Shown one piece after another: positions 1 through 36,060 of a stretch of DNA of 64,000 bases. The first letter of the stretch is position 1. Every line of letters starts with the position of its first letter. Source of the stretch: Sphingomonas sp. (GTDB taxonomy: Bacteria; Pseudomonadota; Alphaproteobacteria; Sphingomonadales; Sphingomonadaceae). The DNA lies in contig JAFIGU010000006.1 of assembly GCA_017849555.1 (NCBI GenBank), positions 19,273 through 83,272 on the forward strand, given 5' to 3'. Under the pieces are notes generated by a model that did no database searches, was not told where the DNA came from, and worked only from the letters and a program-made list of their open reading frames with translations. The position numbers were made by a program, and so were the translations under genes.

Positions 1-434
1 ACGGCGTCGTCCAACAACTCGCGGTGACCAGCGAGGGCGCGGTGCTCAAGCCCGCCGATCCGATCCTCGTCGTGGTGCCGGCCAATGCGCGGCTGATCGT
101 CGAGGCGCAGGTCCTCAATCGCGACATCGGCTTCGTCCGCCCCGGCCAGCCGGTGACGGTGAAGCTCGAGGCATTTCCGTTCACGCGCTACGGCACGCTG
201 GAGGGGCGGCTGATGTGGGTCAGCCGCGACGCGATCCAGGACGAGAAATTGGGGCCGGTCTATCAGGCGCGGGTGGCGATCCTCGGCAACCGCCCGACCG
301 GTGGCGGCGCCCCGCTCGACGTGTCGCCCGGGCTGGTGGCGAGCGCCGAGATCAGGACATCCGAGCGGCGGGTGATCGACTTCCTGCTGAGCCCGATCGA
401 GCGGCGGGTGAAGGAAGCGGGGCGAGAGCGGTGA
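1..434 (+). CDS. HlyD-family type I secretion membrane fusion protein (3' end only)
   Basis: This is the C-terminal part of a periplasmic adaptor; the frame is open to the left edge, so the start is outside the window. The visible residues form the beta-rich end of HlyD proteins, with a hairpin containing VVVPANARLIVEAQVLNRD, then FVRPGQPVTVKLEAFPFTRYG, a calcium-neutral barrel segment, and a short charged tail (SPIERRVKEAGRER) as in HlyD proteins of type I systems. It would link the inner-membrane ABC exporter, probably encoded upstream off the window, to TolC. Its place just before a Hint/calcium-loop substrate and an HlyC acyltransferase supports type I secretion over RND efflux. Family call is firm; the partner exporter is inferred. 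Confidence 0.9.
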   Translation, partial: GVVQQLAVTSEGAVLKPADPILVVVPANARLIVEAQVLNRDIGFVRPGQPVTVKLEAFPFTRYGTLEGRLMWVSRDAIQDEKLGPVYQARVAILGNRPTGGGAPLDVSPGLVASAEIRTSERRVIDFLLSPIERRVKEAGRER

Positions 435-492
435 AGGTGGGGCGTAAGCGCTTATAAATGCGCGGGCAGGAAGGTTACCGAATTTTTTGCGA

Positions 493-506
493 TTGATCCG
501 GGTCAA
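493..506 (+). promoter_or_regulatory. FNR/FixK-like box
   Basis: TTGATCCGGGTCAA is a near-perfect dyad matching the FNR/FixK consensus TTGAT-N4-ATCAA with one mismatch. It lies between the HlyD stop (434) and the next start (558). Its centre is near 499.5, so a class II arrangement would put a transcription start near 541, just before the ribosome site at 543-550. Regulation by oxygen or a Crp/Fnr protein is inferred. Confidence 0.5.
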
Positions 507-557
507 ATGCTCGGCGCTATTTGGGTCATAGGCTCCTCGGGTGGAAGGAGCGTGGCG

Positions 558-1643
558 ATGACGAGTCGCGGTGGGGAATTTCCTGTAAGATGGCGACGGG
601 CTGGTCTGACTTACGCTGCCTTGTTCGTGGTTGCGCCCTCTGCAGCGCTCTTTGCCCTTGATGGCTGCAGCGCCTCCGCCGCCGATCCGCTGGGCTATCA
701 TATCGAAATGGCCTACTCGGCCGGCGGAAAGATCGAAACTGCCTGGATTGATTATCGTTGCCGGACCATCGGTCCGAGATCCCTGGGCTTAGCCGACAGG
801 GCGCTCGACGAAAAAACGGTTCGTATCGGCGGGACAGGACCGCTCAAACTTACTCTCTCCTGGGATTGGCTCTACCGGGGCGCGCCGTGCCCGCCTACCT
901 ATTACAAGCCAGCGGACAAAGTAGAGGCAGCTCCGCCCGTTATGGTGATGGATGGGGGCAATCATCCGCGGACCGTGTGGTTTATCCGCACTACCGAGGT
1001 AAGAATGCCTAGGCCGCTGGCCGATAAATATATCATCGCCAAATTTGCTGTTCGGCATCTGGCGGAAGTGAAGGAGGGGCGACAGGATCGGCCCGATGAC
1101 TATCGCGCACTGAAGGTATTTGCGCCGCGTATTGAATTGGTCGGCCTGCCAGAAACGACCCACGATATGCCGGTGACGCGGGCTCACCCACTTTGGCAAT
1201 GGCTCGCCGGTCAACCAAGTAAGGCAATCGCGATATGCGATATCGCCCGGTTCAATGACATCCTGCTCGGCCTGGAACGTGAGGGTGTCGATATCGATTG
1301 TGGACGTGCGGTCCAGCGCACGGAGCCGCCTGCGCCAGTCAAAATCCACCCGTACTTCCTTGATTATGCTGGAAATCGAGTGTGGCGAATTTCAAACCAA
1401 GGGCGTTTTCAGCCAATAGTTGCGATATCCAGCAATCATCCGGATTGCTTGACTAAAAAAGCCGGCGCCGAAAAATTCTGGGATAATTGCATCGCCACCT
1501 TGGGAGTCGATGGCCGCTACTCCGTCGAGATCTCTGATATCTCGAATCCACTTCTCGTCTGGGACGGGAGCGAAAATCTACTGTACCTCGTCCGATACAA
1601 ATCAGAACAAGTACTTCATGATGCTATGGAAGAGCGGCCGTGA
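558..1643 (+). CDS. Exported protein of unknown function, coupled to the type I substrate
   Basis: I do not recognise this 361-residue protein. The ATG at 558 is chosen because GGAAGGAG (543-550) sits 7 bases upstream; an ATG at 507 is possible but lacks such a site. The N-terminus has arginines followed by a hydrophobic stretch (about residues 14-35) ending near GCSASAADP, so it looks like a signal peptide or anchor, possibly with a poor lipobox (LDGC). The rest is soluble, with several cysteines, suggesting a periplasmic or surface protein. Its TGA overlaps the GTG start of the large substrate (GTGA), so the two are translationally coupled. A chaperone, immunity or surface-display partner role would be guesswork. 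Confidence 0.75.
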   Translation: MTSRGGEFPVRWRRAGLTYAALFVVAPSAALFALDGCSASAADPLGYHIEMAYSAGGKIETAWIDYRCRTIGPRSLGLADRALDEKTVRIGGTGPLKLTLSWDWLYRGAPCPPTYYKPADKVEAAPPVMVMDGGNHPRTVWFIRTTEVRMPRPLADKYIIAKFAVRHLAEVKEGRQDRPDDYRALKVFAPRIELVGLPETTHDMPVTRAHPLWQWLAGQPSKAIAICDIARFNDILLGLEREGVDIDCGRAVQRTEPPAPVKIHPYFLDYAGNRVWRISNQGRFQPIVAISSNHPDCLTKKAGAEKFWDNCIATLGVDGRYSVEISDISNPLLVWDGSENLLYLVRYKSEQVLHDAMEERP

Positions 1644-3817
1644 CAAATCCGATCAAGGCGTCTGCCGTACGTGATCTCGCGCTATTATCGGCAGATCTCG
1701 CTTCTGTCAATCTTTCAGCTGAGAAAGCAATATTCGATATCAAGGGGCTTCCAAATATCTCATCTAAGGCAGTATTTTCAAAAATTTATTCCAATGCGAT
1801 GGAGCAGGTCAGGTCGAAGTTCAGCCTGAGCAGCGCTCAAGAGCTTGGCGGGGCATTCAGAACCAGTGTCATTGCGGTTCAAAGCGAGAGCGATCCTCAA
1901 CAATATCTGATCTCGATCGGCTCGGGCAGTCTGCTGACGCCGCTTTCGCAAGGTGAAAATGGCGCATTGGCGCGCGATTACGCGGCAACGCTCACCTATG
2001 TCGATTCGATACGGAAACAAATTCTTGCTCAGGATCGTCAGGCACGCGTTGACGTCGTCGGCGCCTATAATGGCGGCACGCTCGCAAAAGCCTATTCGAC
2101 TCTCACCGGCGCCAATGCAATCTCATTCAACTCGTCAGTGCTCGACGCAGGAATTCTGGGATCGGTTGATCGATACGCCCGAGAAAATCTGGGATATCCC
2201 TTGGGGGTACAGTTCGAAGATTACCCTGATCTCCGCGTCAATTTCACAACGTTCCAGCTTGAAACCGCGGCTCCTTACGAGACATCAATCCGCGCTGCGG
2301 TGAACAGCGATGCGCGAGCCTTTGACGAAACGCTTGCGCCCGCGCTTGACGTTGTCAATATTCTGAGCGGCGTAAAGTCCGGCGGTGACGGTTTCTATGA
2401 TCTGTTCAAAGCGATTAAATCTGCTAATCGCACCGACAGTCTGATTGCGGTTGCAGGGGATTTATCTTTTCAGCGCGCGACAGAATATGGGAGCGACTTC
2501 TCGAAGAAAAATTTTCAGTTTGAGGTGCCTACCGACGTTCCAGGATTTCTTGCCGGCGTTGCCAAAAGATGGGGGTTGGAATCTCAAGGCGATATCCAAA
2601 GCATCAGGTTTGATAACGAGCTAATTACCTTTGGCGCGGACCGCGCGATTGTCGATACACCGCAGATGCGGATTGAAGACGAGTTAAGGTGGTATGCATA
2701 TAGTCAGGCCGAGCTGTCTCGCGTAGTTCGAGACGCGCTCGTTCAAGATCCTTTGATTGTTGATAAAATACTGAAAAATAGAGGGTTTTCCAAGCCGTTC
2801 AGCAACTTGACATTCAAGGAATATATATACCAAAAATCCCTATATGGTGAGTTTCGCCAATCTATCTTGAACGAAGCGGTCCCTGTAGAAATCAGCTCTA
2901 CCTGGAATATCCGCAATCATCAGCCGGTCATTGATGGATATCTTCAGGCGTTTACGGATTCGATGCTGCGTGCCGGTGCAACGCCATCCGAAGCGGATAT
3001 CAGCCTGTTCTATAATCGGATGGGCATTCTCTTCGGACCAGATGGACCGATGGAGGGACGCTTCGATTCGATCGGTTCGGTTCAAGCGCGTAAGTATCTT
3101 GTCGATGGCACTGTTGCCGACGCGCTGGACGTACGCCCCGCGGCGAGCAGAAAATATGTCCCGACCTGCTTTCCTGCAGGGACCGAGGTAACGCTCGCGG
3201 ACGGTTCGACCCGTCCGATCGAGACGTTGAGCGTAGGTGATGAGATACTCTGCTTTCCAGTTGCCGATGCTGCGGCGGGCGCGCTAATCACGGGCCGTAT
3301 TGCCGGTTTTCGTCAACTGACTGCGCCTGGGCTCGTTCGATCGAATGTGTTCAACGCCACTGCCGATCACGAATTCGTGATGGCCGATGGCAGCTTCCGC
3401 ACCGCTGGCAAGATCGAGGTCGGCGATCGGATCGCGACGGCAGACGGCACCGCGACGGTGGAATGGACGGCTGTCATCGATAAGAGCGTTGACGTTTATA
3501 GCATCGCCGTTGAGCCCCATCCGACATATATCGCAGACGGGAACCGGGTTCACAATGAGGCGCTGTGCAATCCCGAGCAGACGCAGGTCCAGCTCGCGCC
3601 CAATCGCAATGCCGTTCTGCAACAGAATCTGGATGGTAGTTTCACCGTCTCGGTCGTCACCGACCAGGGACGAGAAGTCGAGCGCTACGATGTGACGTCT
3701 GAGGCGGCGATCAAGCGCGTGTGGTCCGAGTACAGTGATTTCACCGGAATCGAAGAGCCAGACAGCAACGGCATCCGTCGCAGCCGCTTGTCCGGTGCCG
3801 CGCAGGCTGTGGTCTAG
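1640..3817 (+). CDS. Hint-domain type I secretion substrate, N-terminal part up to an in-frame TAG
   Basis: This 725-residue reading begins at a GTG overlapping the previous TGA. Residues 1-509 are a large region of unknown fold; around residue 150 a VDVVGAYNGG turn resembles the nucleophile elbow of secreted lipase-like domains but lacks the serine. A Hint (hedgehog/intein) domain spans C510 to N639: it opens CFPAGTEVTLADGSTRPIE, has the VGD and TADHEF blocks, and ends VHN. The residue after Asn is Glu, so cleavage is more likely than splicing. About 86 residues later the frame meets TAG (3815-3817), where CAG (Gln) would fit. The same frame stays open to 7042, so the intact gene would encode about 1800 residues. 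Whether this half is made alone is unknown. Confidence 0.85.
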   Translation: MTNPIKASAVRDLALLSADLASVNLSAEKAIFDIKGLPNISSKAVFSKIYSNAMEQVRSKFSLSSAQELGGAFRTSVIAVQSESDPQQYLISIGSGSLLTPLSQGENGALARDYAATLTYVDSIRKQILAQDRQARVDVVGAYNGGTLAKAYSTLTGANAISFNSSVLDAGILGSVDRYARENLGYPLGVQFEDYPDLRVNFTTFQLETAAPYETSIRAAVNSDARAFDETLAPALDVVNILSGVKSGGDGFYDLFKAIKSANRTDSLIAVAGDLSFQRATEYGSDFSKKNFQFEVPTDVPGFLAGVAKRWGLESQGDIQSIRFDNELITFGADRAIVDTPQMRIEDELRWYAYSQAELSRVVRDALVQDPLIVDKILKNRGFSKPFSNLTFKEYIYQKSLYGEFRQSILNEAVPVEISSTWNIRNHQPVIDGYLQAFTDSMLRAGATPSEADISLFYNRMGILFGPDGPMEGRFDSIGSVQARKYLVDGTVADALDVRPAASRKYVPTCFPAGTEVTLADGSTRPIETLSVGDEILCFPVADAAAGALITGRIAGFRQLTAPGLVRSNVFNATADHEFVMADGSFRTAGKIEVGDRIATADGTATVEWTAVIDKSVDVYSIAVEPHPTYIADGNRVHNEALCNPEQTQVQLAPNRNAVLQQNLDGSFTVSVVTDQGREVERYDVTSEAAIKRVWSEYSDFTGIEEPDSNGIRRSRLSGAAQAVV
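3815..3817 (+). other. In-frame amber codon splitting a 1800-codon reading frame
   Basis: The codon order is GCG CAG GCT GTG GTC TAG AAG GGC GAG, all in the frame that begins at 1640. No other stop occurs between 1640 and the TAG at 7040-7042. One C-to-T change from CAG would explain it. Alternatives are a sequencing error, suppression or readthrough. Confidence 0.9.
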
Positions 3818-6800
3818 AAGGGCGAGATTGCGAAGGGCAAACGAATCGACACGGCGGGTGCGCTTGGCGCGTCATTTGGCTCGACACTTGGCAATATCCT
3901 CGGCCAAAGCGCGGCCGGGAAAATCGTTCTTAGCGGCGCGCTTGCGACCGTTCTCGAGAATATCTTCGAAGTAATCGCTAATGGCGGGGGCGGGACGCTA
4001 CCGTTGACGAGAAAAGAGGTTCTGGCAAATATCGAAACCGAATTCGCCGGGAATATCATAGGGGCGGCATCATCGTATCTGATCGCATCTTTAATCAACG
4101 AAATAGGGATCGACGGCATCCCTGGACAAGTGCTTCAGACCGGCCTCAATAACGTTATATCGACGGTTTCACAAAATCTGCTCAAAGGGGCGACAAATCC
4201 CTTTGAGGGGATAGGTGGTGGCCTCGCCAATGCCGGAGCGGCGTTCCTCGGCACGAAACTCGCGAGTGAGCTTGTCCGCTTTGACACGATAGGTGGTCAG
4301 ATTGGGAGTTCGCTGGGAAGCTCGGCCGGTTCGATTCTTGGGGTAGCGTCCGTCGTCGGGACCGGATTCGAAGCAACTTTGCTAGGCGTAAAGCTGGGCG
4401 CCTGGGCCGGACCTGTAGGTGCACTCGCAGGCGCCTTTCTCGGATTTATCGTCGGCGGGCTTATCGGCTCGGTATTTGGCGGAACGCCGCGATCCGGCGC
4501 TGATGTCATCTGGGACCCCGAGACGCAGTCGTTCGATGTGGCTAATTCCTATAGCCGAAAAGGCGGATCGCGGGACGCAGCGATCAGTGTCGCGAGCTCG
4601 GTTGCGGCGACATTCAATTCGGTGTTGGCGACGATCGGAGGGCGCCTGGCTACACCGGAGAAGGTGCAGGCCGGAAATTACGGTATGCGCAAATCCGAGT
4701 TCGTTTATCGACCTTGGTCGACGCGCGACGATTCCGCGATTACAAGGCGATATTCTGGTCAGAAAGGTGCAGAAAAGCTCATTGCCTACGGCGCCTATAA
4801 CGGACTGACGGATCCGGATTTCCAGATCCTCGGCGGAAGCGTCATTCTGAAAAGGGCATTTTACAACGGCCTTAAACTGTCCGGTATCGACCGTGAGAAT
4901 TTTGATTCCAATATTGTATTTGGAAATCTCGCCGCCGGCGCGCGTTACGAGCAGTTTTTAGCGGCGTCTTCGTCGGTGCTTGCCCTGATCGCGTCCGAGC
5001 CGACGACGAAATTTGCAGCAGAATGGGCGATCGTGTTCGCTCGGGCCAACGAGCTGGGGCTGAACCAGCGCGCCGCATCCGACTGGTTCGGAGGTTTCGG
5101 TTATTTCCTTGAGCAATTGGGCGCCACTGCAGCGGAGCTCTCGGTCGATTTCGGGATCGAGTCTTCAATCGGTTTGCCATATAGGCGCTTCCGAGCGGGC
5201 GCTTACGAGGTCGAGGACACGATCGATATAACGAACCAGACCGAAATTGCTGGTTCTGCGAACAATGATTTGATCGATCTGCACGGCAACATGGTGCAGG
5301 GTCAACGGGGAGCGCGTAATAGCGGTAACGGCACGTCCGAAGCGCCGCTGTTCTCGGTAAGGGCTGACCCTAACAGCGCCGGCCAGTTCCAGTTGGTGCA
5401 GCAGACGGCGACCAACAAAGAAGCAATAGAATATTATTACCCCGAACTGGCGGCAATCGATGGTGGTGGACTTATATCGACCGCGGTCAATGCGACGGTG
5501 CGGGTAGAAGATGGGAATGATAGCCAGCGTCTTGAATATGATTATTCTCACTATGGTATGGCAAGTACTTATATTAGATATAAAATTATAGATGAAGATG
5601 ATAATGATGGATTTGTAATTTCTAATGTGAGCTGGGAATCGGATTCTTTGGGAAGTTGGGATGTATCTGTTAGGTATATCGGCAACGGAAAAATGGATTT
5701 AAACATATACGACAGATATTATAATTCTCACTACGGATCATCTGGAACGATTTATTGGACGATCACAGACCGGAACGGTTATGGAACCTCTACTAAATTC
5801 AGTGAGTTTGTCTATGTTGAAGGATGGCCCTGGGATCAGCCATTGCCCCCGGTGGTGCTCGATCTCGACGGCGACGGTATCGAACTAGTCTCACTTCAGG
5901 AATCCGATGTCTATTTCGACATGAACGGCGACGGCGCCGAGGATCGGACCGGCTGGGTTGCCGCCGACGATGGCTTCCTGGTGCTCGACCGGGACGGCAG
6001 CGGTGCGATTGATCGTTACAACGAACTGAGTTTCGCAGCGGATTATGCCGGCGCGGTGTCCGATCTCGAAGGGCTGCGTGCCTACGACAGCAACGGCAAC
6101 GATTATTTCGATGCCGGCGACGCCGAATTCGCCCGGTTCCAGATCTGGCAGGATCGCAATCAGGACGGCATCAGCCAGGCCGACGAACTGAGCACGCTGG
6201 CCGAGAGCCGGATCAGCGCGATTCGCCTGTCGCTCGACAAGACCGGCGCGCCGGTCGACGGCGCGACCGACAATGTGTTTTACGCTTATTCCAGCTTCGT
6301 CCGGACGAACGGCACCGGCGGGGATGTCGGCGATGTGTTCCTCGCTTATGAAGATGTCGCTTCAGTGGCTGATGAAGAGCCCGTTTTCTACGCGCAAGAC
6401 GCCATGATCGCCGATGACGAAGATTCGGCACGCGACACTCCGAAGATCAGATTCTCCGGCCTTGCGGATGGGGAATCGCCCGATCGGCCGGCGACCGCGG
6501 ACGAGTCATCGGCCGACGAAACCGTCGAAGCGTCGATGACCGCAACCGAGGCGCCGCCGCAGTCGCGGGCGTCAGCGGCCCCGTCACCCCGCACCTTCGC
6601 GGCAACGCCCGAAGACCAGGGCATTGCCGTGAAGAAGACGCCCGCGGCGGTTTACGCCGACGCCGCTCCCGCGGAGGCGGGCGATGCTCGGCCGGCGGAG
6701 GCCGCGCGGTTGGTCGCGGGCTGGCAGCCGTTGGGCGAAGCCTGGTCCGCCGACCAACCCGAGCGCGTCGCCGCCGGTGACGATCGCGATCCGCTGGCTA

Positions 6801-7042
6801 AGGCGATTGCGATCCTCGGCGATGCGGCCCCGATCTCGCTCAACGCCGCAGATCGCGCGTCGCTCATTGGCGGCGAAACCGGCCAGCGCGGCGCCGGGGT
6901 TGCGCAGGGCGCGGCGCCCGATGCGCTCAATCGGCTGCTCGTCGCGATGGCGGGGTTCCACGCCGGCGAGGGCGTCGGCGCGATCACACAGCCGCCGCTT
7001 CCCGTCGCCGACGAAATCGCCCAGCTTGCACCGGCGCTCTAG
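3818..7042 (+). pseudogene. C-terminal part of the type I substrate: glycine-rich pore-like region and calcium-binding loops
   Basis: This is the continuation of the 1640 frame after the amber codon; no good start is visible (a TTG at 4004 has only a weak G-rich sequence before it). Just after the stop the protein reads RIDTAGALGASFGSTLG, then a long glycine/alanine-rich hydrophobic stretch (about 4200-4490) with glycine-zipper spacing that looks membrane-inserting. A beta-rich segment encoded by AT-rich DNA follows (about 5510-5810). From 5852 come EF-hand-like loops: DLDGDG, DMNGDG, DRDGSG, DSNGND and DRNQDG, typical of large type I substrates. The tail is Ala/Pro-rich and ends EIAQLAPAL. 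Classical RTX nonapeptide arrays are absent. The downstream acyltransferase suggests this part is lysine-acylated. Confidence 0.8.
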
Positions 7043-7052
7043 GAGAATCGAT

Positions 7053-7580
7053 TTGGAAACGAATGTTGGCCCGCGCTCGGTTGCGGAAGCGCTGGGGCAG
7101 ATCACCTGGTTGCTGACGCAATCGCCGGTGCATAAACACCTCAAGCTTGCCGATCTCGAATGGTCGATCATGCCGGCGCTGCTGCACGAGCAATTTCGGA
7201 TATTCCGTTTCGGGCCCTTGCCTGGCCTCGACGGGATCGATCCGGAGAATTTCCTTCCGGGGGTGACGCGTGAAGGGTTGGAGCAGATGCCGCTCGGGGT
7301 CGCGCTTTGGGGATGGCTGTCCGAGGGCGCCGAGCAAAAGGTGGAGCAGGGCGAACGCCTCGACCCCGCCGAATGGAAATCCGGCGATCGGCTATGGCTG
7401 CTCGAATTGATCGTGCCGTTCAGCACCGTGGAGAACCGTCTTGCAGAGGTCATGATGGCCGATCTGATCGCGGGCCCCTTCGCGGGCCAATCGTTCAGCC
7501 TCCACCGTACCGATCCGACGACAGGCCGGAAGGACAAGGTGACCTTCGGGCGGCAGGGTGCATCAGCCAGCCAAACCTGA
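7053..7580 (+). CDS. HlyC-type toxin-activating lysine acyltransferase
   Basis: The 175-residue product matches the RTX toxin acyltransferase family, which moves a fatty acyl group from acyl-ACP to internal lysines of a protoxin in the cytoplasm. Visible signatures are LGQITWLLTQSPVHKHL, whose SPVH27 aligns with the catalytic His23 of HlyC, and WKSGDRLWLLELIVPF, whose D112 aligns with HlyC Asp92. Length fits the family (about 170). The TTG at 7053 is chosen because AGGAG (7041-7045) overlaps the preceding TAG and sits 7 bases upstream. The tight junction with the substrate gene makes that substrate its probable target. No competing start is visible in the first 30 codons. Confidence 0.92.
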   Translation: METNVGPRSVAEALGQITWLLTQSPVHKHLKLADLEWSIMPALLHEQFRIFRFGPLPGLDGIDPENFLPGVTREGLEQMPLGVALWGWLSEGAEQKVEQGERLDPAEWKSGDRLWLLELIVPFSTVENRLAEVMMADLIAGPFAGQSFSLHRTDPTTGRKDKVTFGRQGASASQT

Positions 7581-8178
7581 GCAGAACATGTGGCTTTTAT
7601 CCAAGCGACGGGATTACAGCAATCTCGTCGCTTGGGGCGATGCGTACCGGCTTGCGCGCAAGATCGAGTCCATTGAGCCTATATCGCAGAAAGAATTGCA
7701 GCGAAGCCACGCGCGCCTGCTCGCTGGTGTCGAACGAGACCGCTCAGTCGCGCACTCATCGATGCATTAGATGTCGACCGTTGGCGAAGCGTGACGCCGT
7801 CCAGTGCAGGTCCCGCGGCCATCGAGTTGGGTCTGAGCCGAAGCCTGATGTGCAACAATGTCGATGGCCAAGCTTGATGAAAGCCGAAACGTCAGTGCCG
7901 CAGTGCCGCAAGAAGCTTCACATTGCGCCCGCAAACACCATTTCATCCCACGCAATCTCGATGGACAGCTGGCACTTGTGATGGTATGGAAATCGGATCG
8001 GAAGAGAATACCGGTGTTAAATCAATACCTTGCCGCGATAACTGGATGCCCGTAGGGGTCACCATATCGCGGTTTATCCGCGGGCGGCGCGCGAAATGCT
8101 CCTCGGAGAAAGCGCCATTCTGAAGCAAAGCGCATTGCACTGGTGACAGCGGCCCGCCCGAGCGGATAGGCGCGCGCG
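7581..8178. other. 598-base spacer without a supported gene
   Basis: Only short frames occur here, such as 7588-7770 on + and 7943-8140 on -, with no recognisable domain, no good ribosome site and no terminator after the acyltransferase. Base composition is mixed. It may contain decayed coding DNA marking the right border of the secretion locus, but I cannot identify a source gene. Confidence 0.4.
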
Positions 8179-29759: not shown

Positions 29760-31811
29760 ATGCGACCCGATATCCTCAATCCGTTGTTCGCCGAGGTGAC
29801 CGCGTTGAAGGGCGTGGGGCCGGCGCTCGCCAAGCCGCTCGAGCGGCTGGGGATCGCGCGCGTCGTCGATCTGCTATTCCATTTGCCGACCGGGTGGATC
29901 GATCGCCTGCCGCGCACTAGGCTCGATGCGAGCGACGCGGGGCGGACGATCGCGATCACGCTCACCCCGCGCGATATCCGCAGCACCGGCTCGGCGCGCG
30001 CGCCGACGCGGGTGCAGGCGGCCGATGCGGCGGGGAATATCGTCAGCCTGGTCTATTTCGGCGGCTCCTCCGGTTGGGTGAAGAAGCTCTATCCGCTCGG
30101 CACCTCGGTGCGGATTTCGGGCAAGCTCGAAACCTATGGCCAGGAGCTTCAGATCATCCACCCCGATATCGAGGGCGACGAGGGATTCCGCGAGCGCGAG
30201 CCGATCTATCCTTTGTCCGAAGGGATCACCTCGCGCCGGCTCGCCGGGCTGGTCGAGCAGGCGCTGGCGCGGGCGCCCGATCTCCCCGAGTGGATCGACG
30301 CGGGGCTGAAGGCCAAGCGCCAATGGCCCGGCTGGAAGGAGGCAATCACCCGCATCCACACCGATCCGGCCGATCAGGCGGCGCGGACCCGGCTTGGCTA
30401 TGACGAGGTGTTCGCCAACCAGCTCGCGCTGATGCTGGTGCGCGCCGATACGCGGCGGCGGCGCGGGCGCGCGTTGAAAGGCGACGGGCGGCTGCGCGAC
30501 CAGCTCAAGCTGCCTTATGCGCTGACGGGGGCACAGGCGCGGACCGCCGCCGAAATCGAGGGCGATCTGGTGCAGGAGGCGCCGATGCTGCGCTTGCTGC
30601 AGGGCGACGTCGGCTCGGGCAAGACATTGGTCGCCGCGCTGGCCTTGCTGATCGCGGTCGAGGCGGGCGCGCAGGGGGCGATGCTCGCGCCGACCGAAAT
30701 CCTCGCGCGGCAGCATTATGAGACGTTGCGTCGCACGCTCGCCGGGTTGCCGGTGGAGATTGCCGTGCTCACCGGGCGCGACAAAGGGCGCGCGCGCGAG
30801 GCGACCTTGATGGGGCTGGCGGACGGCTCGATCGATATCCTCGTCGGCACGCATGCGATCTTCCAGGAAGCGGTGGGGTATCGCGATCTCGCGCTGGTGG
30901 TGGTCGACGAGCAGCACCGCTTCGGGGTCGCCGAGCGGATGGCCTTGTCGGCGAAGGGCCGCGTCACCCCGCATCTGCTGGCGATGACCGCGACCCCGAT
31001 CCCGCGCACGCTGACGCTCGCGCAATATGGCGAGATGGATCAGAGCCGGCTCGACGAAATGCCCCCCGGCCGCGAGCCGGTCGAAACGCGGGTGATCAGC
31101 GAGGAGCGGGTCGACGAAGTGGTCGCCGCGCTCGGCCGGCATCTTGCCGAGGGGAAGCAGGCCTATTGGGTTTGTCCGTTGGTCGAGGAGAGCGAGAAGG
31201 TCGATCTCGCCGCCGCCGAGGCGCGCGCCGCGGCGCTCGCCGCGCATTTCGGCGATCGCGTCGGGCTGGTCCACGGCAAGATGCGCGGCCCCGAAAAGGA
31301 CGCGGTGATGGCCGCCTTCGCCGCGGGCCGCCACGGCGTGCTGGTCGCGACGACGGTGATCGAGGTGGGGGTCGACGTGCCCAATGCCACCTTGATCGTG
31401 ATCGAACATGCCGATCGCTTCGGGCTGGCGCAGCTCCACCAGTTGCGCGGGCGGGTCGGGCGCGGCGGGGGGCATTCGATGTGCCTGTTGCTGCGCGGTA
31501 ATGCCTTGTCCGAAACCTCGCGCGCGCGGCTCGCGCTGATGCGCGAGACCAATGACGGTTTCCGCATCGCCGAAGAGGACCTGAGGCTGCGCGGCGGGGG
31601 CGAGGTGCTCGGCACGCCCCAGTCGGGGGAGGCGGGGTTCCGGCTCGTCGCGCCCGAGCAGCTCGGCGCCTTGCTCCCGCCCGCGACCGACGATGCGCGG
31701 CTGCTGATCGACCGCGACGGCGGGCTCGACGCCGACCGCGGGCAGGCCGCCCGCACCGCGCTCTATCTGTTCGAGCGCGATGCCGGGGTGGCGTTATTGC
31801 GGTCCGGGTGA
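29760..31811 (+). CDS. recG: ATP-dependent DNA helicase RecG
   Basis: The 683-residue branch-migration helicase reverses stalled forks. It has the N-terminal wedge domain with an OB-fold (about 50-150, VRISGKLETYGQELQIIHPD), Walker A GDVGSGKTLVAAL, the DEQH box VVVDEQHRFGVAERM, TATPIPRTLTLAQ, and LRGRVGRGGGHSMCLLL, ending in the family C-terminal block. The ATG at 29760 is preceded by a poor ribosome site but is the conserved start (LNPLFAEVTALKGVGP). Its last 18 bases overlap the end of the symporter gene on the other strand. Confidence 0.97.
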   Translation: MRPDILNPLFAEVTALKGVGPALAKPLERLGIARVVDLLFHLPTGWIDRLPRTRLDASDAGRTIAITLTPRDIRSTGSARAPTRVQAADAAGNIVSLVYFGGSSGWVKKLYPLGTSVRISGKLETYGQELQIIHPDIEGDEGFREREPIYPLSEGITSRRLAGLVEQALARAPDLPEWIDAGLKAKRQWPGWKEAITRIHTDPADQAARTRLGYDEVFANQLALMLVRADTRRRRGRALKGDGRLRDQLKLPYALTGAQARTAAEIEGDLVQEAPMLRLLQGDVGSGKTLVAALALLIAVEAGAQGAMLAPTEILARQHYETLRRTLAGLPVEIAVLTGRDKGRAREATLMGLADGSIDILVGTHAIFQEAVGYRDLALVVVDEQHRFGVAERMALSAKGRVTPHLLAMTATPIPRTLTLAQYGEMDQSRLDEMPPGREPVETRVISEERVDEVVAALGRHLAEGKQAYWVCPLVEESEKVDLAAAEARAAALAAHFGDRVGLVHGKMRGPEKDAVMAAFAAGRHGVLVATTVIEVGVDVPNATLIVIEHADRFGLAQLHQLRGRVGRGGGHSMCLLLRGNALSETSRARLALMRETNDGFRIAEEDLRLRGGGEVLGTPQSGEAGFRLVAPEQLGALLPPATDDARLLIDRDGGLDADRGQAARTALYLFERDAGVALLRSG

Positions 31812-33056
31812 GCCGGCGGGGGGCAGGTCGCCCTCCCATTTCGCGACCACCGCGCTAGCCACCGCATTGCCGATCACGTTGGTCGCCGTCCGCCCCATGT
31901 CGAGGAAGTGGTCGACCGCGAGGATCAGCAACAGCCCCGCCTCGGGGATATGGAACATCGGCAAGGTCGCCGCGATCACGACGAGGCTCGCACGCGGCAC
32001 CCCGGCGATCCCCTTCGAGGTGACCATCAGCACCAGCAGCATCGTGATCTGCGTTTCGATCGGCAGATGGATGCCATAGGCCTGCGCGATGAACAGAGAG
32101 GCGAACCCCATATAGATCATCGAGCCGTCGAGGTTGAACGAATAGCCGAGCGGCAGCACGAAGCTCGCGACGCGCGGCGGGACGCCGAACCGCTCGAGCG
32201 CCTCGAGCATCCGCGGATAGGCGGCCTCGGATGAAGCGGTGGAGAAAGCGACCAGCAACGGCTCGCGCACCTGCCGCGTCAGGTCGACGATCCGCCGCCC
32301 GATGAACAAGGCGCCGATCCCGAGCAGGATCGCCCAGAGGATCAACAGCGAGAGATAGAAGCTGCCCATGAAATAGGCGAGCTGGCCGATCACCTTCGGC
32401 CCGCGCTCGGTGAGTGTCCCGGCGACCGCGGCGAACACCGCGAAGGGGGCGAAGCGCATCACATAATCGGTGATCTGGAGCATCACATGCACCAGCGCGT
32501 CGATCGCGCGGACCAGGGGCTCGGCCTTTTCCCCGACCGCGGTGATCGCCACCCCGACGAAGATCGAGAGGATCACGATCTGCAGGATCTCATTCTTCGC
32601 CATCGCGTCGACCATCGAGGTCGGGAAGATATGCGAGATGAAATCCTTGAGGTTGAACGCGCCGGTTTCGACCCCCGTCGCCGCGCTCGCCGCCGGGAGC
32701 GTCAGATGCACCCCGACCCCCGGCTGGAACAGATTGACCAGCAGGAGCCCGAGTCCGAGCGACAACAGGCTGGCGCCGATGAACCACCCGAGGCTGCGGA
32801 TACCGATCCGGCCCAGCGCCTTGGTATCCCCCATCTGCGCGATCCCCGCGACGAGCGTGGAGAAAACCAGCGGGGCGATGATCATCTTGATCAGCCGCAG
32901 GAAGATCGCGGTGACGATCGAGAAATAGCCCGCGATCTCCTCGAGCCGGGCCTGCGCCGGCGCCGAGCCGTCGCCGATCGCCATATTGAGCGCCAGCCCG
33001 ACCACCAGGCCCAGCAACAACGCGATGAAGATATAGGTGGTCAGCCTCTTGCCCAT
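31794..33056 (-). CDS. Dicarboxylate/amino acid:cation symporter (DAACS family)
   Basis: A 420-residue inner-membrane transporter of the DctA/GltP type, taking up C4-dicarboxylates or glutamate/aspartate with Na+ or H+. Eight membrane segments and two re-entrant loops are expected; the SFSTASSEAAYPRML hairpin, LGYSFNLDGSMIYMG, TSKGIAGVPRASLV and DHFLDMGRTATNVIGN (sodium and substrate site) are all present. The ATG at 33056 has GGGAGG just upstream. A long frame continues further upstream on this strand but is antisense to other genes and is not used. The exact substrate cannot be read from sequence. Confidence 0.92.
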   Translation of the reverse strand: MGKRLTTYIFIALLLGLVVGLALNMAIGDGSAPAQARLEEIAGYFSIVTAIFLRLIKMIIAPLVFSTLVAGIAQMGDTKALGRIGIRSLGWFIGASLLSLGLGLLLVNLFQPGVGVHLTLPAASAATGVETGAFNLKDFISHIFPTSMVDAMAKNEILQIVILSIFVGVAITAVGEKAEPLVRAIDALVHVMLQITDYVMRFAPFAVFAAVAGTLTERGPKVIGQLAYFMGSFYLSLLILWAILLGIGALFIGRRIVDLTRQVREPLLVAFSTASSEAAYPRMLEALERFGVPPRVASFVLPLGYSFNLDGSMIYMGFASLFIAQAYGIHLPIETQITMLLVLMVTSKGIAGVPRASLVVIAATLPMFHIPEAGLLLILAVDHFLDMGRTATNVIGNAVASAVVAKWEGDLPPAGSPGPQ

Positions 33057-33128
33057 ATGCCCTCCCGATATGTGCCGCGGAGGCAAAGGGGATTGCTGCC
33101 GCGCGGTCAAGCGCCGTATCGCTTCGTC

Positions 33129-34394
33129 ATGACGATCCATCGTTTTCTGCCGACGCGCCGTGGCCTGCTCGGGGCCGCTGCTTTGCTGCCGCTCGCGAGC
33201 TTTGCGGGGGTGCTCCGCGCCGCCGAGCCGGATCTGGCCGGGCTGGGCGACATGACCCGCGCGGTGAAGCCGGTCGACGCCGCGGAGCGCGCGGCGCGGC
33301 TCGCCCGCGCACAAGCGCTGATGCAACGCCACGGCATCGGCGCGGTGCTGATCGAGCCCGGATCGAGCATGATCTATTTCACCGGGGTGATGTGGCATCG
33401 CAGCGAGCGGCTGACCGCGGCGATCATCCCGGCGGAGGGCGAGCCGTGCATCGTCGCCCCGTTCTTCGAGGAACCGTCGGTGCGCGAGACGCTCGCCGTC
33501 CCGGCCGAGGTGCGGGTGTGGCAGGAGGATCAGAACCCGCTCGCGGTGGTCGCCGGGTTCCTCAAGGATCGCAAGCTCGCTGGCCGGCCGGTCGGCATAG
33601 AGGAAACCGCGCGTTTCTTCGCCTTCGACGGGTTGGCCCGGGCGTTGCCTGGGGTGAAGCTCGTCTCCGCCAATCCGATCGTGCGCGGCTGCCGGATGAT
33701 CAAGACCCCGGCGGAGATCGCGCTGATGCAGGCAGCGACCGACGTGACGATCGCCGCGTACCGCTGGGTCCACCCGCGGGTCGAAAAGGGCATGACCGGC
33801 GGCGAGATCGGCGCGCTGATGACTGCGGCGACGCGCCGGCTGGGCGGCGATGTCGAATTCTCGATGGCGCTGGTCGGCGAAGCCTCGGCCTATCCGCACG
33901 GCAGCCGCGAGGTGCATCGCGTCGCCGAAGGCGAAGTGGTGCTGATGGATTGCGGCTGCACGGTGCAGGGCTATCAGTCCGACGTGTCGCGTACCTGGGT
34001 TCACGGCAGCGCGAGCGCGGCGCAGCGCAAGGTGTGGGATCAGGTCGCGCAAGGGCAGCGCATTGCGCTCGCCGCGGCGCGGATCGGCGCGCCGGCGGGG
34101 TCGGTCGACGACGCGGTGCGCGCGCTTTACGAGAAATATGGCTATGGCCCGGGGTATAAGCTCCCCGGCCTGTCGCATCGCACCGGGCACGGCATCGGGC
34201 TCGATGGGCATGAGCCGGTCAATCTGGTCCACGGCGAGACGACCCCGCTCGCCGCGGGCATGTGCTTCTCGAACGAGCCGGGGCTCTATCTGCCCGGCAA
34301 ATTCGGGGTGCGGCTGGAGGATTGCTTCCATATGACCCCGGAAGGCCCGCGCTGGTTCAGCACGCCGCCCGCCTCGATCGAGACGCCCGTCTAG
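33129..34394 (+). CDS. Exported M24 (Xaa-Pro type) metallopeptidase
   Basis: A 421-residue protein with a twin-arginine signal (PTRRGLLGAAALLPLASFAG, cut near RAAEP), so it acts in the periplasm. The N-terminal domain is the creatinase/prolidase type and the C-terminal domain is pita-bread. Metal ligands are visible as D in MDCGCTVQGYQSD and its second D, H in RTGHGIGLDGHE, E in CFSNEPGLY and E in VRLEDCFHM. It probably removes the N-terminal residue before proline from peptides; the substrate is not known. It is divergent from the symporter gene with 72 bases between. Tat export of an M24 enzyme is less usual than a cytoplasmic form. Confidence 0.9.
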   Translation: MTIHRFLPTRRGLLGAAALLPLASFAGVLRAAEPDLAGLGDMTRAVKPVDAAERAARLARAQALMQRHGIGAVLIEPGSSMIYFTGVMWHRSERLTAAIIPAEGEPCIVAPFFEEPSVRETLAVPAEVRVWQEDQNPLAVVAGFLKDRKLAGRPVGIEETARFFAFDGLARALPGVKLVSANPIVRGCRMIKTPAEIALMQAATDVTIAAYRWVHPRVEKGMTGGEIGALMTAATRRLGGDVEFSMALVGEASAYPHGSREVHRVAEGEVVLMDCGCTVQGYQSDVSRTWVHGSASAAQRKVWDQVAQGQRIALAAARIGAPAGSVDDAVRALYEKYGYGPGYKLPGLSHRTGHGIGLDGHEPVNLVHGETTPLAAGMCFSNEPGLYLPGKFGVRLEDCFHMTPEGPRWFSTPPASIETPV

Positions 34395-34400
34395 GTAGTT

Positions 34401-34484
34401 CGTCATACCGGGCTGGACCCGGCATCCAGAGCCAAGAACCTCATCGCCCGTTGCTCTGGATGCCGGATCAAGCCCGGCATGACG
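34401..34484. repeat. 84-base double-arm inverted repeat, CGTCATGCCGG family
   Basis: CGTCATACCGGGCTGGACCC... and ...ATGCCGGATCAAGCCCGGCATGACG pair as outer arms, with CCAGAGC/GCTCTGG inside. The element at 57598-57681 shares the same arms and length. It fills most of the gap between the peptidase and rmuC. Confidence 0.75.
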
Positions 34485-34565
34485 ATAATAGGTGATGGGA
34501 ATCGCTTTAGAGCGAATGTCGATCCGACCTAGACAGTTAAGTCGTGTTCCGATTATGTTCCGGCG

Positions 34566-35945
34566 ATGATTGAAGTCGCTGCCATCGCGCTTGTCGCGCT
34601 CGTCGTCGGTCTGGCGATCGGCTGGTTCGTCGCGCGCCGCGAGGTTGCGGCGCTGCAGGCAGAGCGCGACCAGCGCACCGAGGAATTCAAGCGCGCAATC
34701 GTCGATCTCGCCGCCGCGAGCGAACGTGCCAAGGCGGCCGAGGGACTGCGCGCGGAACTGGAGACGATGCGCCGCGAGCGCGACGAGGCGCGTACCGAAG
34801 TCACCCGGCGCGAGACCGAGGCGGCGGCGTTTGAGACGCGGCTCGCCGAGTTCAAGGCGGCGAAGGATGATCTGGCCGGCCGTTTCCGTGAGGTCGCGGG
34901 CAATCTGCTCGGCGAGGCGCAGAAGGCGTTCCTCGAACGCGCCGACGAACGCTTCCGCCAGTCGGAGGAAAGCGCGGGGCAGGGGCTGCGCGCCTTGCTC
35001 CAGCCGGTCACCGAGCGGTTGCAGCGCTACGAGGAGGGCGTGGCCAAGGTCGAGGCCGAGCGGCGCGACGCGTTCGGCACCCTCTACGGCCAGATCGAGG
35101 CGATGCGCGTCGGGCAGGAATCGGTGCGCGCGGAGGCGCAGAAGCTGGTCAACGCGCTGCGCGCCGCGCCCAAGGCGCGCGGACGCTGGGGCGAGCAGCA
35201 ATTGCGCAACGTGCTCGAGACCTGCGGGCTCGCCGAACATACCGATTTCGCGCTCGAGGTGAGCGTCACCGGCGACGACGGCGAGCGGCTGCGCCCCGAT
35301 GCGGTGGTGCGCGTGCCGGGCGGCAAATCTTTGGTGATCGATGCCAAAGTGTCGCTCAACGCCTATCAGGACGCATTCGCCGCGGTCGACGAGCAGGAGC
35401 GCCAGATCGGGCTGACCGCGCATGCCAACGCGATGCGCGCGCACGTCAACACCTTGGGCGCGAAAGCTTATTGGAGCCAGTTCCCCGATGCGCCGGATTA
35501 CGTCATCATGTTCGTGCCGGGCGAGCATTTCCTCTCCGCCGCGCTCGAACACGATCCGACCCTATGGGATGCGGCGTTCGACAAGCGCGTGCTGCTGGCG
35601 ACCCCGACCAATCTGATCGCGATCGCGCGCACCGTCTCGGCGGTGTGGCGGCAGGAGCGGCTGGCGACCGAGGCGCGGCAGATCGGTGCGCTGGGCAAGG
35701 AATTGTACGACCGGCTCGCCAAGGCGGTCGGCGATCTGCGCGTCGTCGGGAGCGGGCTCAACACAGCGGTGAAGAATTACAACGGCTTCGTCGCGAGCTT
35801 CGAATCGCGCGCGCTGGTGAGCGCGCGCAAGCTGCGCGACCTCAATATCGAGCCCGGCGCGCGCGAGATCGAGACGATCTCCCCGGTCGAGTTGCTCGCG
35901 GGGCATGCCGAGGACGAGAGCGAGCGGCCGCTGATCGCGGAGTGA
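34566..35945 (+). CDS. rmuC: DNA recombination protein RmuC
   Basis: A 459-residue protein with an N-terminal membrane segment (about residues 4-22, VAAIALVALVVGLAIGWFV), a coiled coil (about 30-190), and the RmuC nuclease-like domain with WGEQQLRNVLETCGL, PDAVVRVPGGKSLVIDAKV and YVIMFVPGEHFLSAAL. RmuC limits inversions and promotes controlled recombination, and in some systems acts against phage. Length matches the family. It stands alone between repeat-filled gaps. Confidence 0.95.
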   Translation: MIEVAAIALVALVVGLAIGWFVARREVAALQAERDQRTEEFKRAIVDLAAASERAKAAEGLRAELETMRRERDEARTEVTRRETEAAAFETRLAEFKAAKDDLAGRFREVAGNLLGEAQKAFLERADERFRQSEESAGQGLRALLQPVTERLQRYEEGVAKVEAERRDAFGTLYGQIEAMRVGQESVRAEAQKLVNALRAAPKARGRWGEQQLRNVLETCGLAEHTDFALEVSVTGDDGERLRPDAVVRVPGGKSLVIDAKVSLNAYQDAFAAVDEQERQIGLTAHANAMRAHVNTLGAKAYWSQFPDAPDYVIMFVPGEHFLSAALEHDPTLWDAAFDKRVLLATPTNLIAIARTVSAVWRQERLATEARQIGALGKELYDRLAKAVGDLRVVGSGLNTAVKNYNGFVASFESRALVSARKLRDLNIEPGAREIETISPVELLAGHAEDESERPLIAE

Positions 35946-35952
35946 GCCCGCC

Positions 35953-36060
35953 CGTCATCCCGCCTTGAGCCGGGATCCATTGTGCCTCGGGCGTTTCGGC
36001 CAGAACCTCTTGCTTCGCGCCTGCCTCCCGATGGATCCCGGCTCAAGGCCGGGGTGACGG
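35953..36060. repeat. 108-base inverted repeat with conserved interior
   Basis: Outer arms CGTCATCCCGCCTTGAGCCG and CGGCTCAAGGCCGGGGTGACG flank a non-palindromic middle that includes CTGCCTCCCGATGGATCCCG. The element at 48156-48267 has the same arms and the same middle, so this is a dispersed element rather than a simple hairpin. Confidence 0.75.

What the first reader, a model, noticed from the sequence alone, without database searches (positions are those of the whole stretch)
1640..7042. One amber codon splits a 1800-codon type I secretion substrate
Frame 1640-7042 has a single stop, TAG at 3815-3817, and 1074 further sense codons follow. Protein signatures continue on both sides (Hint domain before, pore-like and calcium-loop domains after), and CAG-to-TAG is one base change. 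It may be a recent mutation, phase-variation-like loss of function, suppression, or readthrough releasing two products at a point soon after the Hint domain.
Basis: seen in the sequence. Interest (0 to 1): 0.75.

Follow-up and report, generated by a model that had tools for sequence, protein, structure and literature searches.

The report
Broken giant secreted-protein gene
A Sphingomonas strain carries a stop codon in the middle of a gene for a very large secreted protein that also lacks most of its repeat region, so it looks like an ordinary gene that recently broke rather than a new way of reading stop codons.

Summary
In detail: frame 1640-7042 is open except for one TAG at 3815-3817. It is one gene, not two: in Sphingomonas lycopersici MMSM20 it is a single 4762-codon ORF, and 8 of the 9 other carriers among 295 genus genomes are single ORFs of 4503-7091 codons.

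The copy lies in an accessory type I secretion block (HlyB-HlyD-orf-substrate-HlyC), 64-83% identical in aligned pieces between two strains whose flanking DNA is 98-99% identical, and at different sites in them.

The parts that could be tested show constraint and no faster evolution, so the stop is young, tolerated or an error. None of 43 typed tRNAs is an amber suppressor, and the gene's own terminator is also TAG. The truncated product would lack the C-terminal tail, the presumed export signal.

Best reading: a recent loss-of-function stop in an already shortened accessory exoprotein gene. Reads were not available.

The parts
3..434 (+). 3' part of the HlyD-type membrane fusion protein gene; the HlyB-type ABC transporter gene lies just upstream, outside the window
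   Evidence: PF13437 HlyD_3 57.8 bits; L065 ORFs of 741 and 473 codons, stop to stop; dN/dS 0.13-0.14 against the S. lycopersici copies
507..1643 (+). hypothetical gene of the block, kept at the same place in S. lycopersici
   Evidence: no Pfam or NCBIfam hit; 55% identical orthologue
1640..3817 (+). first piece of the substrate gene: head domain, Hint domain, 86 further codons, then the amber stop
3167..3556 (+). Hint / bacterial intein-like domain (residues 510-639); Cys first, TxxH, terminal His-Asn followed by Glu
   Evidence: motif positions
3815..3817 (+). the single in-frame amber stop
   Evidence: not in the S. lycopersici gene nor just before the core in the other uninterrupted loci
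3818..5326 (+). conserved Gly-rich core domain (C1), 503 codons
   Evidence: 80% identical to S. lycopersici residues 726-1227; dN/dS about 0.05 with dS near saturation; homologues in 9 other genomes of 295
5327..5350 (+). junction where about 3005 codons with RTX and cadherin-like repeats of the relative are absent, in frame (placement approximate)
5849..6358 (+). homologue of the FrpC self-processing module, EF-hand-like calcium loops; the residue before the first Pro is Pro, not the scissile Asp
6785..7039 (+). conserved C-terminal tail, presumed type I secretion signal
   Evidence: similarity to the S. lycopersici C-terminus; function inferred from what is known of type I substrates (passages)
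7040..7042 (+). natural terminator of the gene, also TAG
7053..7580 (+). HlyC-type acyltransferase gene
   Evidence: PF02794 92.4 bits; 84% identical homologue downstream of the S. lycopersici gene
1..8044 (.). window part of the accessory block (it begins about 3.45 kb upstream of the window)
   Evidence: conspecific flanks end at -3455 and resume at window 8045; the other strain has an integrase-like ORF in the stretch there

Best explanation
A variable type I secretion block carries its own very large calcium-binding exoprotein. In this strain the exoprotein gene lacks about 3005 codons of RTX and cadherin-like repeats in frame and has a premature amber stop 86 codons after its Hint domain (both shown relative to the closest relative; that other carriers keep long ORFs makes loss the likelier direction). 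The stop cuts off the core domain, the FrpC-like module and the C-terminal tail. Because type I substrates carry an uncleaved C-terminal export signal, the 725-residue head-Hint product should stay in the cytosol and the exoprotein should not be made (inferred). The transporter, fusion-protein and acyltransferase ORFs are open. The stop is recent, so the gene is an early pseudogene, probably tolerated because the exoprotein is strain-specific and dispensable (inferred).
For: Single 4762-codon ORF in S. lycopersici. In the genus scan 10 of 295 genomes match; apart from the window's own, 8 of 9 are single ORFs of 4503-7091 codons. 9 of 10 fetched loci are uninterrupted across the position. The window lacks relative residues 1228-4232; PF00353 gives 0 matches in the window's genome and 23 in the relative's. 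Core after the stop: dN/dS about 0.05 with dS near saturation. No acceleration: 37 window against 40 relative changes in the core, 16 against 25 in the FrpC-like module. No suppressor among 43 typed tRNAs. No second copy found in the genome.
Against: Draft assembly of 121 contigs and no reads, so the base and the shortening could be assembly or consensus errors. The loss keeps the frame, which a gene already dead would do only about one time in three. dS is saturated or near saturation throughout the substrate gene, so dN/dS is rough; the C-terminal part is less conserved (53% aligned identity, one block at 0.33). Relative-rate tests covered only the core and the FrpC-like module; the head and the tail had no outgroup. 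Only one close relative of the whole gene was found. No expression data.
Confidence: 0.72

Rival explanations
1. Consensus or assembly error: the stop is a wrong base, and/or the repeat region was collapsed or skipped by the assembler; the living strain has an intact giant gene.
For: 121-contig draft, 97.19% complete, 4.82% contamination; long repetitive RTX genes assemble poorly (general knowledge); the rest of the gene looks constrained.
Against: The contig runs through; the two sides meet in frame and I see no repeat at the junction (by eye); the missing 3000 residues were not found elsewhere in the assembly (no positive control for that query), and PF00353 found no RTX repeat in it (23 matches in the relative's genome).
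Confidence: 0.17
2. A living miniature: the shortened gene still works, the amber being leaky or serving to make a separate head-Hint product while occasional readthrough gives an exported mini-protein.
For: In-frame loss leaves core, calcium module and C-terminal tail readable; constraint and no acceleration after the stop; the Hint domain lies just before the stop.
Against: No suppressor tRNA among 43 typed; the same codon ends the gene at 7040 and 7 of 48 mechanically picked ORFs, this gene's two included; none of the 9 uninterrupted loci has a stop there; the head product would lack the C-terminal tail.
Confidence: 0.05
3. Two genes: the second piece is translated from its own start.
For: TTG at 4004 opens a 1012-codon ORF.
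Against: The first ATG/GTG/TTG is 62 codons after the stop, inside the conserved core, and the first ATG is at 4685; none of 10 loci has separate genes here, L064 being frameshifted.
Confidence: 0.03
4. Amber is suppressed or reassigned in this strain.
For: No positive evidence; tRNA-Ile and the UGC tRNA-Ala are missing from the typed set, so the list is not complete.
Against: 43 of 44 tRNA matches typed, none with CUA; the 44th is a truncated fragment; TAG ends the gene itself.
Confidence: 0.02

Closest known systems
S. lycopersici MMSM20 giant RTX/cadherin exoprotein gene (4762 codons)
   Same: same block order, head, Hint, core, FrpC-like module, tail and HlyC; 63% (head and Hint) and 80% (core) identical
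   Different: no stop; keeps about 3005 codons with RTX and cadherin-like repeats; lies at another site of the genome
RTX exoproteins exported by HlyB/HlyD, with HlyC-type acyltransferase
   Same: transporter, fusion-protein and acyltransferase genes adjacent; conserved C-terminal tail
   Different: window copy has no RTX nonapeptide repeat and is interrupted
FrpC-type self-processing module
   Same: homology over 170 residues with EF-hand-like loops (6sjw)
   Different: the scissile Asp before the first Pro is not present in the window or in S. lycopersici
Bacterial intein-like (A-type) Hint domains
   Same: Cys start, TxxH, terminal His-Asn, no nucleophile after it
   Different: activity untested; the part after the Hint domain is now cut off by the stop

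Membership tests
RTX exoprotein | glycine-rich nonapeptide repeats (PF00353) | tested here: not met
   0 GGxGxD in both pieces; 0 PF00353 matches in the window's genome, 23 in the relative's
RTX exoprotein | type I export genes next to it | tested here: met
   HlyD by Pfam, HlyB and HlyD ORFs matching the S. lycopersici ones, HlyC downstream
RTX exoprotein | C-terminal uncleaved secretion signal that works | not testable with these tools
   conserved tail present after the stop, function inferred
FrpC-type self-processing module | sequence homology over the module | tested here: met
   6sjw E 1.1e-29
FrpC-type self-processing module | scissile Asp-Pro bond at its N-terminus | tested here: not met
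   Pro-Pro in window and S. lycopersici; Asp in 2 of 7 distinct other homologues
A-type bacterial intein-like domain | intein-fold homology with catalytic Cys, TxxH and C-terminal His-Asn, no nucleophile at +1 | tested here: met
   motif strings (TxxH as a motif is recalled)
A-type bacterial intein-like domain | self-cleavage | not testable with these tools
   needs protein
Programmed stop-codon readthrough | stop conserved at the same place in relatives | tested here: not met
   8 of 9 other genus carriers are single ORFs; 9 of 10 loci uninterrupted just before the core; only S. lycopersici aligns at the exact codon
Amber suppression | tRNA with CUA anticodon | tested here: inconclusive
   none of 43 typed tRNAs, but the tRNA set is incomplete

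The most novel reading that the evidence does not exclude
The window copy is a working miniature of a giant exoprotein: the in-frame loss of the repeat arm leaves head, Hint, core, calcium module and tail, and the amber makes most ribosomes release a head-Hint product in the cytosol while rare readthrough gives an exported short form.
Probability: 0.05. Interest if true: 0.7.

Novelty: new member of a known kind. Interest (0 to 1): 0.27.

Why it matters
It turns an apparent puzzle about stop-codon use into a likely case of gene loss, and shows that a larger event was missed: about 9 kb of the repeat region is absent in frame. It also points to giant type I exoproteins in sphingomonads with a shared core and heads that are not alike, carried on DNA that differs between two genomes of one species, and with a Hint domain in the window and S. 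lycopersici members. That family, rather than the amber, is the thing a specialist might follow up.

Tried and rejected
Suppressor tRNA: searched and not found in an incomplete set. Two-gene organisation: not supported by any of 10 loci. Missing middle moved elsewhere in the genome: not found (no positive control for that query); PF00353 with a positive control agrees. Plasmid carriers: 4 records, best 40.8% identity, not informative for the stop. Head domain elsewhere: the profile of the first piece matched 8 of 249 relatives, the window's own over full length and 7 others only around the Hint domain; the first piece matched 1 of 4 genomes. AlphaFold2 of the first piece with a two-row alignment: mean pLDDT 33.8, discarded, no fold search made. 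NCBIfam: only weak intein hits in the first piece and nothing in the second. Pfam on the heads of 8 homologues: four weak hits, none over a cut-off. Attachment repeats at the block ends: no shared 14-mers within 250 bases of the ends. Literature: searches (15 of 29 rows shown; 12 of 50; 3 of 3; 12 of 15; 12 of 15; 10 of 21; 1 of 1) were listings; the titles and abstract starts shown do not name this gene. One search listed 2 papers that name S. lycopersici, neither opened.
Full report
What was claimed and what is there. Frame 1640-7042 has one stop, TAG at 3815-3817, with 725 codons before it and 1074 after it, and ends in TAG at 7040-7042. The first ATG/GTG/TTG after the stop is TTG 4004 and the first ATG is at 4685.

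Neighbourhood. Upstream on the same contig are open HlyB-type and HlyD-type ORFs of 741 and 473 codons (stop to stop, L065; HlyD by Pfam, both 86% identical to the S. lycopersici ORFs), then a gene without family hits at 507-1643. Downstream at 7053-7580 is an HlyC-type acyltransferase (PF02794, 92.4 bits). This is a type I secretion block with its substrate.

The substrate before and after the stop. The first piece holds a Hint domain: PF05203 over its cut-off, PT-HINT, Hint and Hint_2 below theirs. The nearest solved structure by profile is a bacterial intein-like domain (2lwy, E 2.1e-8). Cys510, Thr574-x-x-His577 and the terminal His638-Asn639 are present, followed by Glu. A review describes A-type bacterial intein-like domains with terminal His-Asn as cleaving but not ligating (PMC7765530, passages). 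The second piece has no Pfam or NCBIfam hit. Residues 678-847 of it match the self-processing module of FrpC (6sjw, E 1.1e-29). That module breaks an Asp-Pro bond at its N-terminus (PMC7078468, passages). In the window and in S. lycopersici the residue in the Asp position is Pro; 2 of 7 distinct other homologues have Asp (10 other loci printed, of which L011 repeats L006, and L013 and L015 repeat L010). So the homology holds but the defining cleavage site does not.

Relatives. A pattern scan of the genome collection with the second piece gave 2 loci, S. lycopersici MMSM20 (L002) and a Sphingopyxis MAG (L003). In S. lycopersici the gene is one ORF of 4762 codons. The window's first piece matches its residues 1-723 at 63%; the second matches 726-1227 at 80% and 4233-4762 at 48%. 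Within the genus, 6 of 151 genomes, own included, matched the second piece, several only by the FrpC-like module, and 10 of 295, own included, matched the core domain. Of the 9 others, 8 have it inside single ORFs of 4503-7091 codons; the ninth (G088) is split. Across 10 loci examined for the upstream side, 9 run in one ORF for 451-759 codons before the core; the tenth (L064, G088) is broken into overlapping ORFs in several frames. Only S. lycopersici aligns at the exact codon, because the other heads are not similar to the window's (the first piece hit 1 of 10 loci). No uninterrupted relative has a stop just before the core, and none has two separate genes there.

The larger difference. Relative residues 1228-4232, about 3005 codons, are absent from the window copy, and the two sides meet in frame near window 5327-5350. 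In the whole relative protein Pfam gives 27 RTX repeat stretches plus cadherin-like and Big_9 domains. The window pieces have 0 GGxGxD motifs against 45. The missing part was not found elsewhere in the window's genome (the tool warns that this empty answer had no positive control), and the RTX family PF00353 gave 0 matches in the window's genome against 23 in the relative's. The other carriers have long ORFs, so loss in the window is the likelier direction. A misassembly is not excluded.

How old is the stop. Against S. lycopersici the core after the stop has dN/dS about 0.05 with dS about 2.5, near saturation; HlyB and HlyD have 0.14 and 0.13. In the first piece, 3 of 6 blocks were saturated and the other three gave 0.14, 0.10 and 0.06. 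The C-terminal part is saturated overall and its last block gives 0.33, so constraint there is weaker. Counting residues changed on each side against 8 outgroup sequences gave 37 on the window side and 40 on the relative's side for the core, and 16 against 25 for the FrpC-like module (duplicates among the outgroups as noted). There is no sign of faster evolution on the window's branch in these two parts; head and tail could not be tested. The stop is therefore recent, tolerated, or an error.

Can the stop be read. The genome has 44 tRNA matches. ARAGORN typed 43, none with anticodon CUA; the 44th (L061) is a truncated fragment that by my own reading carries GAC (sequence). The list is not complete: tRNA-Ile and the UGC tRNA-Ala do not appear in it. 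TAG ends 7 of 48 mechanically picked ORFs of the window, this gene's two ends included; some of these ORFs may not be genes. No positive sign of suppression was found. A C-terminal uncleaved export signal is the rule for RTX proteins (PMC3034196, passages), so a product ending at 3815 should not be exported.

An accessory block. The tool labels G278 the same species as the window's genome; by its matching coordinates G278 appears to be the same genome as G151, which holds the MMSM20 locus. Window 30001-36000 is 99% identical to it. The flanks match at 97.9% up to -3455 and at 99.2% from 8045. The secretion block between -3141 and 7550 aligns to the G278 block only in pieces, at 64-83% identity (85% in one 254-base sub-piece), on a different contig. 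At the window's site G278 has an 18.7 kb stretch with an integrase-like ORF (my reading of the translation). Two 6 kb flank pieces of the G278 block gave only weak or short matches in the window's genome (best 68% over about 518 bases, and 52 bases at 89%). So the block is variable DNA between these two genomes, which fits a gene that can be lost.

Conclusion. The gene is best described as an early pseudogene of a shortened giant type I exoprotein. An assembly or base error is the main rival. Readthrough, suppression and two-gene readings have no positive support.

Noticed in passing
L099, L100, L101, L102, L103, L104, L063, L003 (upstream of the core domain): Giant exoprotein homologues share the core domain, but tblastn of the window's first piece hit only S. 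lycopersici among 10 loci. Three heads (L100, L101, L063) show HExxH-like strings by eye; Pfam gave nothing over a cut-off. Looks like a core with interchangeable heads.
   Followed up: partly
window 1-8044 and L096/L097: The secretion block occupies a site where a conspecific genome has an 18.7 kb stretch with an integrase-like ORF; near window 8045 both strains share what looks to me like a tRNA 3' end, though ARAGORN types no tRNA there.
   Followed up: partly
window 34400-34484: An element of about 85 bases that matches dozens of places in the conspecific genome on both strands, so dispersed and probably palindromic (capped list).
   Followed up: no
L064 (G088): The giant exoprotein gene is broken across several overlapping frames in a one-contig, 88% complete genome, which looks like indel errors.
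   Followed up: no
window 1640-7042 against HlyB/HlyD: Synonymous divergence from S. lycopersici is at or near saturation in the substrate gene but 0.69 and 0.66 in the adjacent HlyB and HlyD genes, and the substrate GC is 0.54-0.60 against 0.60-0.72 for 2-kb blocks beyond 8 kb; suggests separate histories of gene and transporter.
   Followed up: no
window 5849-6358: FrpC-like self-processing module without the scissile Asp, as in 5 of 7 distinct other homologues examined.
   Followed up: partly
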